From: Archaeoglobus neptunius
GTDB taxonomy: Archaea > Halobacteriota > Archaeoglobi > Archaeoglobales > Archaeoglobaceae
Assembly: GCF_016757965.1 (NCBI RefSeq)
Contig: NZ_JAEKIW010000006.1
Coordinates: forward strand, 62,001-126,000
Direction: 5' to 3'
Length of the DNA: 64,000 nucleotides
Below are positions 30,995 through 35,775 of this stretch, one piece after another. The notes under the pieces are model-generated. The model was not told where the DNA came from, ran no database searches, and worked only from the letters and a program-made list of their open reading frames with translations. A program made the position numbers and the translations under genes. Numbering within the stretch: the stretch's first letter is position 1; each line of letters opens with the position of its first letter.

Positions 30995-31777
30995 CTACTC
31001 CACTTTCTGCATGCACCACTCACCGAATCCTTCCCTGACGTTCTTCTCCCCAACAAAGACCGTGGTGTTCAGTTCATTGATGGAAACGATGGTGGGGACG
31101 AACACGACGCCGTACCTCTGCATAACTTCCACGCAGTCGGCAGTCATATTGCTGACGTTGCAGTAAGTGATGTTGCACATCTCAACCAGTGATTTTACTT
31201 TGCTACAGTGCGGACAATGCGGAGAGAAGAAGTAGTAAACGCCTTGTAGCATGCTTTCGTTTTCGTGCAGGAGGTCGTAGATAGCGGACCTGTTTATCTC
31301 CGCATCGTTGATGCTGATGCTGACGTATCTGGCAACCACAATCGTCGAGTTCCGCTGCACCACCGCAATTTTCTCAGGAAGGGTGTGGTTGAGTTGTATC
31401 ACAAAGCTGAGGTCTCCGGAATTTGCTATCAGCTTTCCGTCATCAGCTTTGAGGCTCATGGAGTCAAGGTTGTTGAGCACAGCAACAAAGGGGTCGATCG
31501 TATCGAAGTCGTCTTTGCTTGCGGCAAGCTTGAACATCCTACCTTCACTCACGATGGTCTTGGTCCCGTTGTCTATTAGAACTGCAGTCCCGTTCTCGAT
31601 CTTCAGAACCCTGTCCGGCTTCACGTAGGTTACTTCGGCTCTGTAACTCTTATTACCCACAATGTAGATCACGTCAGCTTTGAAGGAGTTTATTTTGTTC
31701 CAGTAGTCGTCCACTTGGGGCTGCGCTACACACCCCGCCACGGCTGCGATGAGAAAGAGTATCACAACGCGCCTCAT
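30995..31777 (-). CDS. Lipoprotein with LolA-like domain fused to DsbA-type thioredoxin domain
   Basis: This 260-residue protein begins MRRVVILFLIAAVAGC, a lipoprotein signal with lipid cysteine C16. Residues about 25-150 look like the LolA-like beta sheet of archaeal surface lipoproteins (KADVIYIVGNKSYRAEV, VKPDRVLKI). Residues about 178-255 are a thioredoxin fold with FFSPHCPHC, active site C188-P-H-C191, and cis-proline in VPTI (P228). CPHC is the DsbA-type oxidising motif. ATG 31777 has GGTGG upstream and overlaps the preceding gene stop by 4 bases. Anchored outside the cell, it could form disulfides in the cysteine-rich peptide encoded upstream. That role is inferred. Confidence 0.8.
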   Translation of the reverse strand: MRRVVILFLIAAVAGCVAQPQVDDYWNKINSFKADVIYIVGNKSYRAEVTYVKPDRVLKIENGTAVLIDNGTKTIVSEGRMFKLAASKDDFDTIDPFVAVLNNLDSMSLKADDGKLIANSGDLSFVIQLNHTLPEKIAVVQRNSTIVVARYVSISINDAEINRSAIYDLLHENESMLQGVYYFFSPHCPHCSKVKSLVEMCNITYCNVSNMTADCVEVMQRYGVVFVPTIVSINELNTTVFVGEKNVREGFGEWCMQKVE

Positions 31778-31986
31778 CTTGCCACCACACTGAGGGCAGC
31801 CGTGTAGATTATGAAGCCTGCAATGTATATAGCCGCAAGGTCGCGTTTCTCCAGTCTGCCCTCCGCCAGAACAACATCTAAGGACAACAGAGCAGAAGCT
31901 ATGGTCGTTTTCCAGACTGTTCGGTAGGAAATGAAGATGCAGAACGCCGCAATCGTCGTTAAAAGGTGTGCTACGAACCTCTTCAC
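31774..31986 (-). CDS. Small two-span membrane protein
   Basis: This 70-residue protein starts at GTG 31986 (MKRFVAHLLTTIAAF). It has two hydrophobic segments, near residues 7-20 and 48-68, with a charged loop (AEGRLEKRDL) between. Its start overlaps the stop of the upstream membrane-protein gene by 3 bases, and its stop overlaps the lipoprotein start, so three genes are translationally linked. No family is recognised. Immunity or export functions are possible given the neighbouring archaeocin-like gene, but unproven. Confidence 0.6.
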   Translation of the reverse strand: MKRFVAHLLTTIAAFCIFISYRTVWKTTIASALLSLDVVLAEGRLEKRDLAAIYIAGFIIYTAALSVVAR

Positions 31987-32384
31987 ACTTCCACACCCCT
32001 GTAGATTCTGAAGACGTCGTAGAGGACGAGGAGCAGGGAGATGGCTATTCCGGCGTAGAAGATCCGCGAAGACCAGGTTTCGATGAAGGCACTCGCAATC
32101 ATTGCCACCATCAGGACTATCGCACCAATTCCGGTGTAGAACAGGGTGCTTGCAGGTCTCGACTTCCTCTCGATTACAGTTTTGGTCAGAATTGTGGCAA
32201 ACGCTGTTATCCACCACATGACAAAAGATCTCAGTCCGATAGTTGTCAGAGCGTCTTTCGTGTTCTGTTTTAGTGGAAAATTGTTAATCGAGATAAAGCA
32301 CATTGCTGAAATTACCAGGGAAATGAATGCTACTATTCCAAGCGTTTTTGTGACGGGATGTATATCCTTTCTGAAAATTGCCAT
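31983..32384 (-). CDS. Four-span membrane protein, unknown function
   Basis: This 133-residue protein starts at ATG 32384 after ribosome site GGTGAG. Four hydrophobic stretches are visible at about residues 13-33, 50-67, 80-102 and 108-127. The N-terminus is cytosolic and basic (FRKDIHPVTK). It lies 22 bases downstream of the halocin-C8-like precursor gene and is coupled to the next two genes. Small multi-span proteins beside bacteriocin genes often give immunity. That is a positional inference only. Confidence 0.6.
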   Translation of the reverse strand: MAIFRKDIHPVTKTLGIVAFISLVISAMCFISINNFPLKQNTKDALTTIGLRSFVMWWITAFATILTKTVIERKSRPASTLFYTGIGAIVLMVAMIASAFIETWSSRIFYAGIAISLLLVLYDVFRIYRGVEV

Positions 32385-32406: not shown

Positions 32407-33102
32407 TCAACATAGGTGTGCAGCTTTGCATGCAGCATTAGCGCCTTGATCGCAAGCCCGATCTATGCCATACTCACATATGATCGTGCAGGTGATTTCG
32501 CAGATTCCTGCTGCGATGGGATTCTCTATTAGAGCTACGCATATCTCTCCACAAGTTTCTGCACATGCTATGATGCCTCCTGCCGCTGTAGAGCATAATT
32601 TTGAGACTACTGCCTTGCAGATCGAACACTTGTCTGGCAACCAACCAGAGGTATGGACAAATTTCTTTGTCGAATATATCTCCCCACCAGTAGCGTAATA
32701 TATTCTGACGACCTGTCCGTCCAAAATGCCAATCACCGTTGCTTCCCCATATCTGTTCTTGATGTACACCAGCAGACCATTTTTCTTACCTTTCAGTGGA
32801 ACTTTGACGATTTCAGTCGTCACACCCCTGTGACTGACAACCTGCACGATGGCCTTGCTGTAAACCGGTTTCAGGTTCAGATCGCTGAGATGCTCTCTCA
32901 GCATTAAAGAATCCTTGCCGTTGAACACCTGTACGGCTTTAAGGTAGGCGATGGAACCTCGCACGATCGAACTCTTCACGTCGTTCGGAATTGTAACCAC
33001 ACCCGAACAGCTCGGGCAGGAGTTGTTTTCTTCAGCCGCCACCGGCATCACAGCACTCCCGACTAAGACCAGAACTAACATTAAGCTCACCAGTCTTTTC
33101 AT
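32407..33102 (-). CDS. Secreted precursor with C-terminal halocin C8-like cysteine-rich domain
   Basis: This 231-residue precursor has a Sec-type signal peptide (residues 1-23, likely cut after VAA), a CPSC pair at 29-32 and a mostly beta-rich middle region (about 35-155). The C-terminal domain of 73 residues (159-231) has 12 cysteines: 159, 162, 170, 180, 184, 188, 201, 205, 209, 217, 225 and 231. The order of features (CSxCK..., AAGG, I/VC, CEYG, ACKAAHLC end) resembles the archaeal antimicrobial peptide halocin C8, which ends CNRAGLC and is also released from the C-terminus of a larger precursor. Unlike halocin C8 it has no twin-arginine signal. The middle region could be a pro or immunity domain. 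Confidence 0.72.
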   Translation of the reverse strand: MKRLVSLMLVLVLVGSAVMPVAAEENNSCPSCSGVVTIPNDVKSSIVRGSIAYLKAVQVFNGKDSLMLREHLSDLNLKPVYSKAIVQVVSHRGVTTEIVKVPLKGKKNGLLVYIKNRYGEATVIGILDGQVVRIYYATGGEIYSTKKFVHTSGWLPDKCSICKAVVSKLCSTAAGGIIACAETCGEICVALIENPIAAGICEITCTIICEYGIDRACDQGANAACKAAHLC

Positions 33103-33125
33103 ACCATCACCTCATCAACACTGTG
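33055..33125. repeat. 71-bp direct repeat, copy 1
   Basis: This copy covers the ribosome site region and the first 16 codons (signal peptide) of the halocin-C8-like gene. It matches 34808-34878 at 70 of 71 positions. The single difference changes codon 5 (Val here, Met in copy 2). Outside it the two genes are unrelated. Confidence 0.95.
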
Positions 33126-33235
33126 GCTATTTAGCACCATACCACAATGCGCAACATTAAGAGTGGTTGGACTGTAGACGACATCCGTCGATATGCAAAC
33201 TTTCCTGCCCTTCATCTACCAAAGGCTGGACAATC

Positions 33236-33802
33236 TTAAACGACCATGCACGCAACGGTGTAGTTGTTCCACCCCTCCTTCAAGGTAACCTTGTCCAGAT
33301 GACCGTTGAGCCAGAAACCCCAGACGTAGCCCGTATGCATCGGCAAAGTCAGGCCAGACCACTTCGCCCAGATCTCGAACTTTAGGCTGACTCTGTCTGC
33401 ATCTCCGGACATGTAAGCGTACACTTCAGTAGGCTCGTAGTACGATTTGACCTCTGCCGTACTCGGTTTGACGACATCGAGCTTGCTGAAGATCGGAACT
33501 CTGTGCGAATAGTAACCCATCACCGTTGTTCGATTTTTTGTTACGATCTTGAGCATCTTTCCGTGCTCGGTCTCCACAATCTCCATAACTTTCGTCCCAT
33601 TCACCGCAAGGTTTTCCATAACATCGTGGATGGTTCCATCTTCCTTAAGCACTACCGGGACGTAAACCGTCACAGCTTTACTGCAGTTCACAGGCTCGAC
33701 TGTAACGCGATACTCGACGATGTTGACCTGAGCTTGGCTGAGAACGATGATGGCGGCAAAGATAACAGCGGCAATAGCAACAATCCGGAAATTGGGCAGC
33801 AT
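33236..33802 (-). CDS. Exported protein of unknown function
   Basis: This 188-residue protein starts at ATG 33802 with ribosome site GGTGGTGA. It opens with a signal or anchor (residues about 6-27, FRIVAIAAVIFAAIIVLSQA) followed by a beta-rich ectodomain. It has two ectodomain cysteines, in VNCSKA near 40 and at the end in YTVACMVV, able to form one disulfide, and several N-x-T/S sites. No family is recognised. It lies 39 bases after the phospholipase gene on the same strand, so they probably share a transcript, and it is followed by the halocin-C8-like gene. Confidence 0.65.
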   Translation of the reverse strand: MLPNFRIVAIAAVIFAAIIVLSQAQVNIVEYRVTVEPVNCSKAVTVYVPVVLKEDGTIHDVMENLAVNGTKVMEIVETEHGKMLKIVTKNRTTVMGYYSHRVPIFSKLDVVKPSTAEVKSYYEPTEVYAYMSGDADRVSLKFEIWAKWSGLTLPMHTGYVWGFWLNGHLDKVTLKEGWNNYTVACMVV

Positions 33803-33841
33803 CCGATTCACCACCTATTAATAAAAATTTTAAGAAGCTTA

Positions 33842-34855
33842 TCATTTTTCCATTTTCCCCCCTACCTTCTCAGCCAGTGCGTTCGCATACAATTTACTGA
33901 GTTCATCACCGCTTATCTTTACTTCGAACCAGACTGTGTATACTCCCGTCTTTTTGTCGAACTTGCCATGCGGAACCAGAACACCATCTTTTATCAACTC
34001 ACGTCCTACCTCCTTCTTTATTTCCACGATTTGGCGATCGATCTTGGCGATTTTTTCCATTTTTTCCATCGAAGATTTTGCCATTCGCAGATTCGTGAGA
34101 TAATTGTACGACGCATCTATCGACGCTTGCCACCATTTTTCGTAATCCCCAAAAGTGGCCTTAGCTGCAAGATATTTATCCCAGCTAAAAGACATCTGCT
34201 CTGCTACAATTTCTGCCATCAACTCTGTAAACTCCCGGTTTATCTGGTCCTCCGTCGGAATCGGGAAATCACCACCGTATCGCTTTTTGTATTCCTGTAC
34301 AACCGATTTTATGAAGGACGAGTACACTTTAAACTCCCACGGCCAAGGTGCAGCTCCATTTTTCTCGTAGTAAGTAATGCAATCTATGTTGTACTCCACA
34401 AACAGGTGCTGAGGAAGGTTGCTCGGTTCAACACCCTTGTATTCAAGATAGGACTTCCCGTGAGGATATGCCGGAGTTACCCATGATGGCTTCCATCCGT
34501 GGATGTAGTAATCAGACACGTGATGTGTCAACCACCCTGCCGTATAGGCTATTTCTTGATCCGTCGAAGCCCTTTGCCACACGAAACGGTTGAATCTCTC
34601 GTCATAGTGGAAGAGTTGAGCCAGTTTGCTCCATCCCTGCGGTACTGTTACCCCGTCTTTGCCTACGAATATGTCCGGCACAACAGCACCGTTTATGGAG
34701 TCGATTTTGTAAAGATATACCTGCCGTGGAAGTCCGCTTCTATCAGCCAGTTTCTTTACGATGCTGTAATGCGTCGGTCCACCCCAAGCGATTACCGGAC
34801 CAAACATACTCCCGACTAAGACCAGAACTAACATTAAGCTCATCAGTCTTTTCAT
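33842..34855 (-). CDS. Secreted zinc-dependent phospholipase C-like protein
   Basis: This 337-residue protein has a signal peptide nearly identical to the halocin-like precursor (first 23 residues). Cleavage would expose W24 (WGGPTHYSIV), which matches the mature N-terminal tryptophan that binds zinc in bacterial zinc-dependent phospholipase C. Further family features are the PDIF aspartate near residue 61, FHYDE near 85 and GWLTHHVSDYYIHG near 108-121 (HxxxDxxxH). The remaining 200 residues are helical and less conserved. It may act on lipids or another phosphodiester; archaeal lipids differ, so the substrate is open. It heads the secreted-protein gene set. Confidence 0.78.
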   Translation of the reverse strand: MKRLMSLMLVLVLVGSMFGPVIAWGGPTHYSIVKKLADRSGLPRQVYLYKIDSINGAVVPDIFVGKDGVTVPQGWSKLAQLFHYDERFNRFVWQRASTDQEIAYTAGWLTHHVSDYYIHGWKPSWVTPAYPHGKSYLEYKGVEPSNLPQHLFVEYNIDCITYYEKNGAAPWPWEFKVYSSFIKSVVQEYKKRYGGDFPIPTEDQINREFTELMAEIVAEQMSFSWDKYLAAKATFGDYEKWWQASIDASYNYLTNLRMAKSSMEKMEKIAKIDRQIVEIKKEVGRELIKDGVLVPHGKFDKKTGVYTVWFEVKISGDELSKLYANALAEKVGGKMEK

Positions 34856-34878
34856 ACCATCACCTCATCAACACTGTG
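34808..34878. repeat. 71-bp direct repeat, copy 2
   Basis: This copy covers the ribosome site GAGGTGATGGT and the first 16 codons of the phospholipase C-like gene, and matches 33055-33125 except at one base. Both genes therefore share a leader cassette. Confidence 0.95.
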
Positions 34879-34896
34879 ACACGCTTAAACACGTGA

Positions 34897-34904
34897 TATT
34901 TAAA
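34897..34904 (-). promoter_or_regulatory. TATA box for the phospholipase C-like gene
   Basis: On the minus strand TTTAAATA lies about 45 bases upstream of ATG 34855. It would place a transcript start near 34874, leaving a short leader that includes GAGGTGATGG. It lies next to several TTAAG/CTTAA repeats. Confidence 0.55.
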
Positions 34905-34994
34905 CTTTTCTACAATTAAATAAAAACTTAAACTTAATTTATTTTTTAAGTAAGTAGCTTAAAAATTCTTGAAAAGTTAAATAGCAAGCTTAAA

Positions 34995-35003
34995 TTTATA
35001 TAA
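34995..35003 (+). promoter_or_regulatory. TATA box for the divergent HTH regulator
   Basis: TTTATATAA is centred about 26 bases before a probable transcript start near 35025. GTTGGTG at 35023-35029 then serves as ribosome site for the regulator. Confidence 0.5.
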
Positions 35004-35037
35004 CAGAGCAAAAAAGCTTTAAGTTGGTGCATGCTAC

Positions 35038-35775
35038 TTGCACTCAATGTTGCCGCCAAGGAAGCGTGAGATCCTGCATATTTTATCAAAAGCTCCACTG
35101 ACGAACTCTGAAATTTCGAAAGTGGTTGGTATAACCCCAGCAGCGGTTTCGGATCACATGAGAAAGCTTGTTGGTGATGGACTGGTTGAGAAAACCGGTA
35201 AAAAGTTCACCCTGACCCCCAAGGGTCTGATCACTCTCCACACTTCAGAAATTATTGAAAGTACGCTATCTGCGATCGAAAAAGATAGAGAATTCTGGGA
35301 GGAGCACGATCTGACGGCAATTCCATCGCACCTTCTCTTGAGGCTCGGAGAACTCGGGAACTATGAGGTGATAAAAAGTGGAGAAAACGAAATTCTGAAA
35401 CACAAGGAAAGGTTTACCGAAGTCGTGAGAAAATCGAAGTGGATCAGGGCAGTTTTCGGCTTTTTTCTCCCCGACTACCCGCCCCTCCTCACCAGAGTAT
35501 CTCAACATACGGACATATCGGTCGTTGTCAGCAGAGACGTTGCAGTGAAGCTGGAAGACCATCAGGATATTTTGAAAAGTTTCAAAGGAAGGCTGTTCGT
35601 TTGCGATAACATTAAGCTCGTCTGCATAGCGGGCAGCGAGGGACTGTGTCTGGGCTTGTTTCTGAAAAATGGCCAGTACGATGTTCGAAGGGGAATAATC
35701 AGCCACGATAGCAGTGCTGCGTGGTGGGGAAGAGACCTCCACGCTCATTTCATTCGATACTCATACACCTTTTGA
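35038..35775 (+). CDS. HTH regulator with FilR1-type (DUF1724) C-terminal domain
   Basis: This protein of about 245 residues has an N-terminal ArsR/MarR-like winged helix (residues about 5-70; LTNSEISKVVGITPAAVSDH and MRKLVGDGLVEKTG). The rest resembles the archaeal FilR1 middle domain, with VFGFFLPDYPPLL and ISHDSSAAWWGRDLHAHF near the end. TTG 35038 fits the GGTG ribosome site at 8 bases; ATG 35047 is the alternative. It is divergent from the phospholipase/archaeocin set, with a promoter region of 182 bases rich in TTAAG repeats between. It is the likely local regulator. The 3' end overlaps nnr by 26 bases. Confidence 0.8.
   Translation: MHSMLPPRKREILHILSKAPLTNSEISKVVGITPAAVSDHMRKLVGDGLVEKTGKKFTLTPKGLITLHTSEIIESTLSAIEKDREFWEEHDLTAIPSHLLLRLGELGNYEVIKSGENEILKHKERFTEVVRKSKWIRAVFGFFLPDYPPLLTRVSQHTDISVVVSRDVAVKLEDHQDILKSFKGRLFVCDNIKLVCIAGSEGLCLGLFLKNGQYDVRRGIISHDSSAAWWGRDLHAHFIRYSYTF

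What the first reader, a model, noticed from the sequence alone, without database searches (positions are those of the whole stretch)
33055..34878. Near-identical 71-bp leader cassette shared by two unrelated secreted proteins
Positions 33055-33125 and 34808-34878 match at 70 of 71 bases, covering the ribosome site and first 16 codons. The proteins behind them (halocin C8-like precursor and phospholipase C-like protein) are otherwise unrelated. This points to recent copying or gene conversion of a secretion leader, so both products may share timing of translation and export. A repeat this close also allows recombination that deletes or swaps the genes between.
Basis: seen in the sequence. Interest (0 to 1): 0.7.

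Follow-up and report, generated by a model that had tools for sequence, protein, structure and literature searches.

The report
Copied export leader on unrelated proteins
Two unrelated secreted proteins of an archaeon carry the same start because a small export-signal segment is copied from gene to gene, and its relatives show the same pattern, each lineage with its own version of the segment.

Summary
The repeat is real: 70 of 71 bases, from 23 nt upstream through codon 16, the only direct repeat of 30 or more bases in the window. The genome has no other close copy. It is one case of a larger pattern in this archaeal family (Archaeoglobaceae). A leader family, found in 31 of 55 family genomes at E<=0.001, heads many unrelated exported proteins: halocin-like, phospholipase-C-like, C39-peptidase-like and unknown. 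Leaders group by genome and genus, not by cargo. Orthologous cargos in different genomes carry each genome's own leader: in one pair the cargo is 753/819 identical and the leader 41/54, while residents match at 48/54 and 50/54. In 14 genomes non-homologous genes share cassettes of typically about 160 bp, mostly from about -120 to the end of the signal peptide. Best reading: ectopic copying (gene conversion) of an export-leader cassette among modular exported proteins. Homogenisation is partial: this genome keeps two unlike leader types.

The parts
33055..33125 (-). leader copy 1: -23 to +48 of the halocin-like gene (ribosome site, start codon, 16 codons)
   Evidence: 70/71 identity with copy 2
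34808..34878 (-). leader copy 2: -23 to +48 of the PLC-like gene
   Evidence: 70/71 identity with copy 1
32407..33102 (-). halocin-C8-like exported protein, 231 aa; middle domain plus Cys-rich C-terminal part (12 Cys in the last 73 residues)
   Evidence: TIGR04449 22.0 bits, under the cut-off of 24; relative in G071 25.4 bits; Cys count; residues 1-151 match a PLC-type protein of G049
33842..34855 (-). Zn-dependent phospholipase-C-like exported protein, 337 aa
   Evidence: PF00882 31.9 bits, over the cut-off of 26.8; orthologues in G023, G018, G012, G042
33236..33814 (-). 192-aa membrane-anchored or exported partner gene, always next to the PLC gene where found
   Evidence: matches beside the PLC in G023, G018, G012, G042 and own contig C7; function unknown, no Pfam family
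30995..31768 (-). exported thioredoxin-like protein with CPHC motif, candidate disulfide helper of the Cys-rich product (inference)
   Evidence: PF00462 25.1 bits, over the cut-off of 22.9
31983..32384 (-). small membrane protein of unknown function
   Evidence: only sub-threshold Pfam matches
34879..35037 (.). intergenic region upstream of the PLC gene, not shared with the halocin-like gene, with six TTTAAG/CTTAAA words (shuffle mean 0.31, maximum 3)
35038..35775 (+). FilR1-type winged-helix regulator, divergent from the PLC gene; possible regulator (inference)
   Evidence: PF08350 61.7 bits; relatives in 9 other fetched loci that hold leader genes

Best explanation
The 71-bp repeat is a copied (conversion) tract: the ribosome site plus the start of the signal peptide of one exported-protein gene was copied, without promoter and without cargo, onto another. 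It is one instance of a process running through this archaeal family. A leader cassette (often promoter + ribosome site + signal peptide) heads a modular set of exported proteins with unrelated mature parts, and ectopic recombination keeps copies within a genome or cluster alike while the cargos behind them differ and turn over. Because the cargos are not homologous, conversion can only act on the leader, so tracts end in the signal peptide. Shown: the tract and its edges, the leader family, grouping by genome rather than cargo, mosaic genes. Inferred: that the agent is homologous recombination (gene conversion) rather than another copying process, which gene was donor, and that the cargos serve antagonism.
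For: Tract edges and identity. Leader family in 31 of 55 family genomes at E<=0.001, 4 of 163 genomes outside the family, all weaker than 3e-4. On the leader tree genome labels need 29 changes (300 shuffles: mean 47.8, minimum 44), genus labels 18 (43.0), cargo labels 35 (37.8, sd 1.5). Best resident leader 0.763 against 0.653 for equally many foreign ones, n=59, Wilcoxon 1e-9; against same-genus foreigners 0.754 to 0.685, n=49, p=4e-4. Mosaic genes: G018/G023 cargo 753/819, leader 41/54, residents 48/54 and 50/54; G003/G045 cargo 662/756, leader 30/51, p=9e-7. 44 of 117 same-genome non-homologous pairs share a stretch scoring 45 or more, against 17 of 400 foreign pairs; 36 of the 44 end between +36 and +81. 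Ordinary signal-peptide genes reach at most 0.662 in 123 pairs; 44 of 88 leader pairs exceed that.
Against: Homogenisation is partial: the own genome has two unlike leader types, C6 and C7/C3; 73 of 117 same-genome pairs score under 45; one leader at a time, only 27 of 59, and 14 of 49 against the same genus, reach p<0.05; in 8 of 45 cases the cargo orthologue's leader is as close or closer, 3 of these being the twin genomes G042/G076. Signal peptides evolve fast, so low leader identity between orthologues alone proves little. The leader set was found with a profile of leaders, which selects for likeness. The window pair lacks the shared promoter seen in most other pairs.
Confidence: 0.75

Rival explanations
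1. Cargo capture: a leader cassette is duplicated in front of a new reading frame, so each new gene is born with the resident leader; later conversion of existing genes is not needed.
For: The proteins are mosaics: residues 1-151 of the window halocin-like protein match residues 4-162 of a G049 protein whose C-terminal part is PLC-like in other genomes. The shared cassette often includes the promoter.
Against: The PLC and its downstream gene are conserved together in G023, G018, G012 and G042, yet the leader differs; G018/G023 share a 92% identical cargo with switched leaders. Capture alone would leave orthologous cargos with orthologous leaders.
Confidence: 0.15
2. Selection or convergence: the leader sequence is dictated by translation and export needs of the cell, so unrelated genes arrive at it without copying.
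For: All are hydrophobic signal peptides with a shared consensus, and genome-specific constraints could make them alike.
Against: 70/71 with no synonymous difference, plus noncoding bases; ordinary signal-peptide genes of the same loci reach at most 0.662; in other genomes the likeness runs to about -120 in noncoding DNA.
Confidence: 0.04
3. Shared RNA-level or promoter-level regulatory element conserved for co-regulation, with the coding likeness as a by-product.
For: A conserved inverted-repeat motif lies upstream of many leader genes in relatives.
Against: The motif is absent from the own genome; the window pair shares no promoter; the 71-nt RNA folds no better than shuffles (z 0.44 and 0.61); no Rfam family.
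Confidence: 0.04
4. Assembly artefact duplicating 71 bases.
For: Only one assembly of this genome was available; the exact 33-mer was not found in genome contigs or viral contigs (records of the own genome may be left out there).
Against: The copies differ by one base, have unique flanks and open frames, and lie inside a 141,555-base contig; the same phenomenon appears in independent assemblies, single-contig ones among them (G008, G017, G045).
Confidence: 0.02

Closest known systems
Hessian fly SSSGP secreted salivary genes (PMC2955719; abstract and section list seen)
   Same: Promoter, UTRs and signal-peptide region highly alike while the mature part diverges; the authors invoke concerted homogenisation.
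   Different: One insect gene family with tandem copies; here archaeal genes, dispersed over contigs, with cargos that show no homology.
Amphibian defence-peptide genes (PMC3731216; abstract and section list seen)
   Same: An arsenal of secreted peptides grown from a duplicated precursor gene.
   Different: Duplication and mutation of whole genes, no copying of the leader alone onto unrelated genes.
Intermolecular gene conversion in Haloferax volcanii (PMC8223754, PMC11276520; search listing only)
   Same: Efficient gene conversion exists in archaea.
   Different: Between chromosome copies, not between short tracts in non-homologous genes.
Halocin C8 precursor (recalled; TIGR04449; processing of HalC8 mentioned in passages of PMC12893001)
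   Same: Exported precursor with a Cys-rich C-terminal part.
   Different: The window protein is just below the family cut-off; its middle domain also occurs in front of PLC-like domains.
Polymorphic toxin systems (recalled)
   Same: Shared N-terminal parts with exchangeable C-terminal parts.
   Different: No immunity function or toxicity tested; the shared part is a plain signal peptide with its promoter.

Membership tests
Zn-dependent phospholipase C (PF00882) | Pfam gathering score 26.8 | tested here: met
   31.9 bits, E 1.6e-7, residues 28-182
Zn-dependent phospholipase C (PF00882) | zinc site, including N-terminal Trp of the mature protein (recalled) | tested here: inconclusive
   Trp24 follows the predicted signal peptide and is invariant in three orthologues, as are several His and Asp; the model is too poor to check geometry (pLDDT 45.3)
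Halocin C8-like domain (TIGR04449) | curated cut-off 24 bits | tested here: not met
   22.0 bits over the whole model; relative in G071 with 54% identity reaches 25.4
Halocin C8-like domain (TIGR04449) | antimicrobial activity after release of the C-terminal part | not testable with these tools
   needs expression and an inhibition assay
Concerted evolution by gene conversion | copies within a genome more alike than orthologues between genomes | tested here: met
Concerted evolution by gene conversion | sharp tract edges with unlike flanks | tested here: met
   window pair 14/34, then 70/72, then 9/24; 36 of 44 pairs end between +36 and +81
Concerted evolution by gene conversion | non-reciprocal transfer seen between closely related strains | not testable with these tools
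   no second strain of this species was available
Polymorphic toxin system | shared N-terminal part with exchangeable C-terminal parts | tested here: met
   N-half-only and C-half-only blastp matches
Polymorphic toxin system | toxic effector with cognate immunity gene | not tested
   a 192-aa-type gene follows the PLC gene in several genomes; its function is unknown

The most novel reading that the evidence does not exclude
Archaeoglobaceae keep a lineage-specific 'address label' (promoter + ribosome site + signal peptide) that recombination keeps uniform over an arsenal of modular, antagonistic exported proteins. The label is read by lineage-specific partners (a regulator and an export or processing factor), so any cargo recombined behind it is at once co-regulated and exported, which makes the leader a device for weapon swapping.
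Probability: 0.2. Interest if true: 0.82.

Novelty: new variant of a known kind. Interest (0 to 1): 0.62.

Why it matters
Concerted evolution is known for whole paralogous genes; here the homogenised unit is a signal-peptide cassette in front of non-homologous proteins, in an archaeal family, repeated in many genomes. It gives a simple handle on the exported effector repertoire of these archaea, which is mostly unannotated, and a natural record of short-tract recombination. It also warns that likeness of leaders cannot be used to infer homology or transfer of the cargo.

Tried and rejected
RNA element in the leader: folds no better than shuffles, no Rfam family. Spread by viruses: no relative of the PLC and no copy of the 33-mer in viral contigs. 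Assembly artefact and convergence: see rivals. Structure: the PLC model was too poor to use (mean pLDDT 45.3). The halocin-like model is good only over residues about 40-150; it gave no Foldseek match at E<=0.001 (best 0.11) and best Z 4.8, not informative. A sequence search of solved structures with the PLC profile gave only a chance-level hit (E 0.6). A first identity measure with free end gaps under-scored unrelated pairs; I replaced it, with the same direction of result. The top pair of the first control set was two leader genes missed by the start rule; the second control set leaves out genes scoring 8 or more with the leader profile. Common operator: the inverted-repeat motif is absent from the window's genome, so it does not explain the window pair. 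Rows dropped: G076 (near twin of G042); G067_C165_13983 in part; that row, G012_C4_66 and G023_C57_21576; those three and G005_C1_1946219.

Literature searches on shared leaders, signal-peptide homogenisation, Archaeoglobus and halocins listed no report of this pattern in archaea; the library holds open-access papers only, and the mBio 2019 paper I looked for is not held. I read passages of PMC4158269 and PMC12893001; none of the passages shown describes it.

Full report
Observation. The two 71-base stretches are as described: 70 of 71 identical, the only direct repeat of 30 bases or more in the window. On the minus strand they span -23 to +48 of two genes in the same direction, PLC-like (34855-33842) and halocin-like (33102-32407), with a 192-aa gene between (33814-33236). 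The single difference changes codon 5. Beyond the tract, identity drops to 14/34 upstream and 9/24 downstream. The own genome holds no other close copy.

What the genes are. The PLC-like protein passes PF00882 (31.9 against 26.8). The halocin-like protein matches the whole TIGR04449 model at 22.0 bits, just under the cut-off of 24; a relative with 54% identity in G071 passes at 25.4. It has 12 Cys in its last 73 residues and a thioredoxin-like gene nearby, as would suit a disulfide-rich product (inference). I therefore say that it looks like, but is not shown to be, a halocin C8 relative.

A leader family. Relatives of the PLC and of the 192-aa gene lie together in G023, G018, G012 and G042, and as a decayed pair on own contig C7. 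One search names three matching records as Archaeoglobaceae metagenome assemblies (contig lengths equal those of G023, G012, G018). Reading the gene starts showed that unrelated genes of one genome share a leader, and that this leader differs from genome to genome. A profile of 17 leaders hits 31 of 55 genomes of the family at E<=0.001 (49 of 55 at E<=5, which includes chance). In 196 genomes of the phylum it hits 28: 24 of the 33 family genomes listed and 4 of the other 163, those 4 all weaker than 3e-4. From the loci fetched I extracted 89 leader frames; the 77 of 60 aa or more fall into 27 cargo clusters (single linkage, so modular proteins are lumped). Pfam matches among 65 members include Zn_dep_PLPC (9), Peptidase_C39_2 (4) and Reprolysin_5 (3), the remainder mostly weak.

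Leaders follow genome, not cargo. On a tree of leaders (G076 left out), genome labels need 29 changes against a mean of 47.8 in 300 shuffles (minimum 44), genus labels 18 against 43.0; cargo labels need 35 against 37.8 (sd 1.5), little better than chance. A leader's best resident match with non-homologous cargo averages 0.763 against 0.653 for equally many foreign leaders (n=59, Wilcoxon 1e-9), and 0.754 against 0.685 for foreigners of the same genus (n=49, p=4e-4). Singly, 27 of 59 and 14 of 49 reach p<0.05, so the signal is strong overall but not universal. In 37 of 45 cases the resident leader is closer than the leader of the best cargo orthologue (at least two of the 37 are flawed rows, G012_C37 with a contig-end copy and G067_C165_19002 with a same-cargo fragment, and the comparison favours residents because the best of several is taken).

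Mosaic genes. G018 and G023 share a cargo of 753/819 identical bases with leaders 41/54 alike; each leader matches a resident, non-homologous gene better (48/54 and 50/54). G003 and G045 share a cargo at 662/756 with leaders 30/51 alike (p=9e-7). The window PLC is 594/822 to G023 in the cargo, 28/54 in the leader (p=0.003), and 48/54 over 18 codons to its halocin-like neighbour.

Size of the unit. Among 117 same-genome pairs with non-homologous cargo, 44 reach a local score of 45, in 14 genomes; of 400 foreign pairs 17 do. The 44 alignments have median length 164 and median identity 0.852; 38 begin at or before -60, most near -120, and 36 end between +36 and +81, near the end of the signal peptide. 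On own contig C7 two genes share 155 of 164 bases (-117 to +48). Ordinary signal-peptide genes from the same loci reach at most 0.662 identity in 123 pairs, while 44 of 88 leader pairs exceed that.

Against. The own genome has two leader types that do not resemble each other closely. Most same-genome pairs (73 of 117) are not clearly homogenised. The window pair shares no promoter, unlike most other pairs. The leader set was gathered with a profile of leaders, so absolute likeness is biased; the comparison of resident with foreign leaders within the same set is not biased in that way.

Mechanism. The simplest account is ectopic gene conversion, limited to the leader because only the leaders are homologous. 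Archaeal gene conversion is documented (PMC8223754 and PMC11276520, seen in a search listing). Capture of new cargos behind duplicated cassettes probably also happens, since the proteins are mosaics, but it does not explain conserved cargos with switched leaders. Leader copies on own contigs C3, C8 and C7 (114509) end in short broken frames with cargo remains behind them, which fits birth and death of such genes.

Novelty. Homogenised signal and promoter regions with diversifying mature parts are reported for gall-midge secreted proteins (PMC2955719, abstract). I found no report for archaea or for non-homologous cargos in the searches listed under Tried and rejected. I rate it a new variant of a known kind.

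Noticed in passing
L104, L105, L126, L135, L136, L137, L181 and others; motif TTCTCANNATATGGTCAGAA: Upstream of many leader genes in relatives lies an inverted repeat (arms 38-39 or 53-54 bp apart), each arm followed by a TATA-like stretch, so it could be a two-way promoter or operator. With up to 2 mismatches: 115 hits in 29 of 55 family genomes against 6 for the reversed control pattern; none in the window's genome. Of 84 distinct sites in held loci, 48 had a start within 190 nt by my rule and 23 of these scored as leader genes (the loci were chosen for leaders).
   Followed up: partly
window 35038-35775 and L063, L069, L121, L128, L130, L143: A FilR1-type regulator lies close to leader genes in several genomes, divergent from the PLC gene in the window; the tandem CTAAA/TTTAG-like words upstream of some of these genes could be its operator.
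   Followed up: partly
L063:3432-5055: In G018 the halocin-like gene is followed by a thioredoxin-like lipoprotein and a small VKOR/DsbB-like membrane protein (named by eye), suggesting dedicated disulfide formation.
   Followed up: no
window 34784-34855: The PLC tract ends just before the part encoding the cleavage site and WGGPTH; if the enzyme needs its mature N-terminal Trp as a zinc ligand, as in related PLC and P1 enzymes (recalled), this would explain why codons 17-24 stay cargo-specific.
   Followed up: no
L061:5568-6240: Own contig C7 carries a decayed second copy of the PLC plus 192-aa gene pair: the PLC frame is cut down to its two ends and the partner gene is frameshifted, behind a leader shared with the gene at L061:2756.
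   Followed up: partly
L066:2659-3837, L067:33-1199: The middle domain of the window halocin-like protein occurs in front of PLC-like C-terminal domains, so leader, middle domain and effector are separate exchangeable modules.
   Followed up: partly
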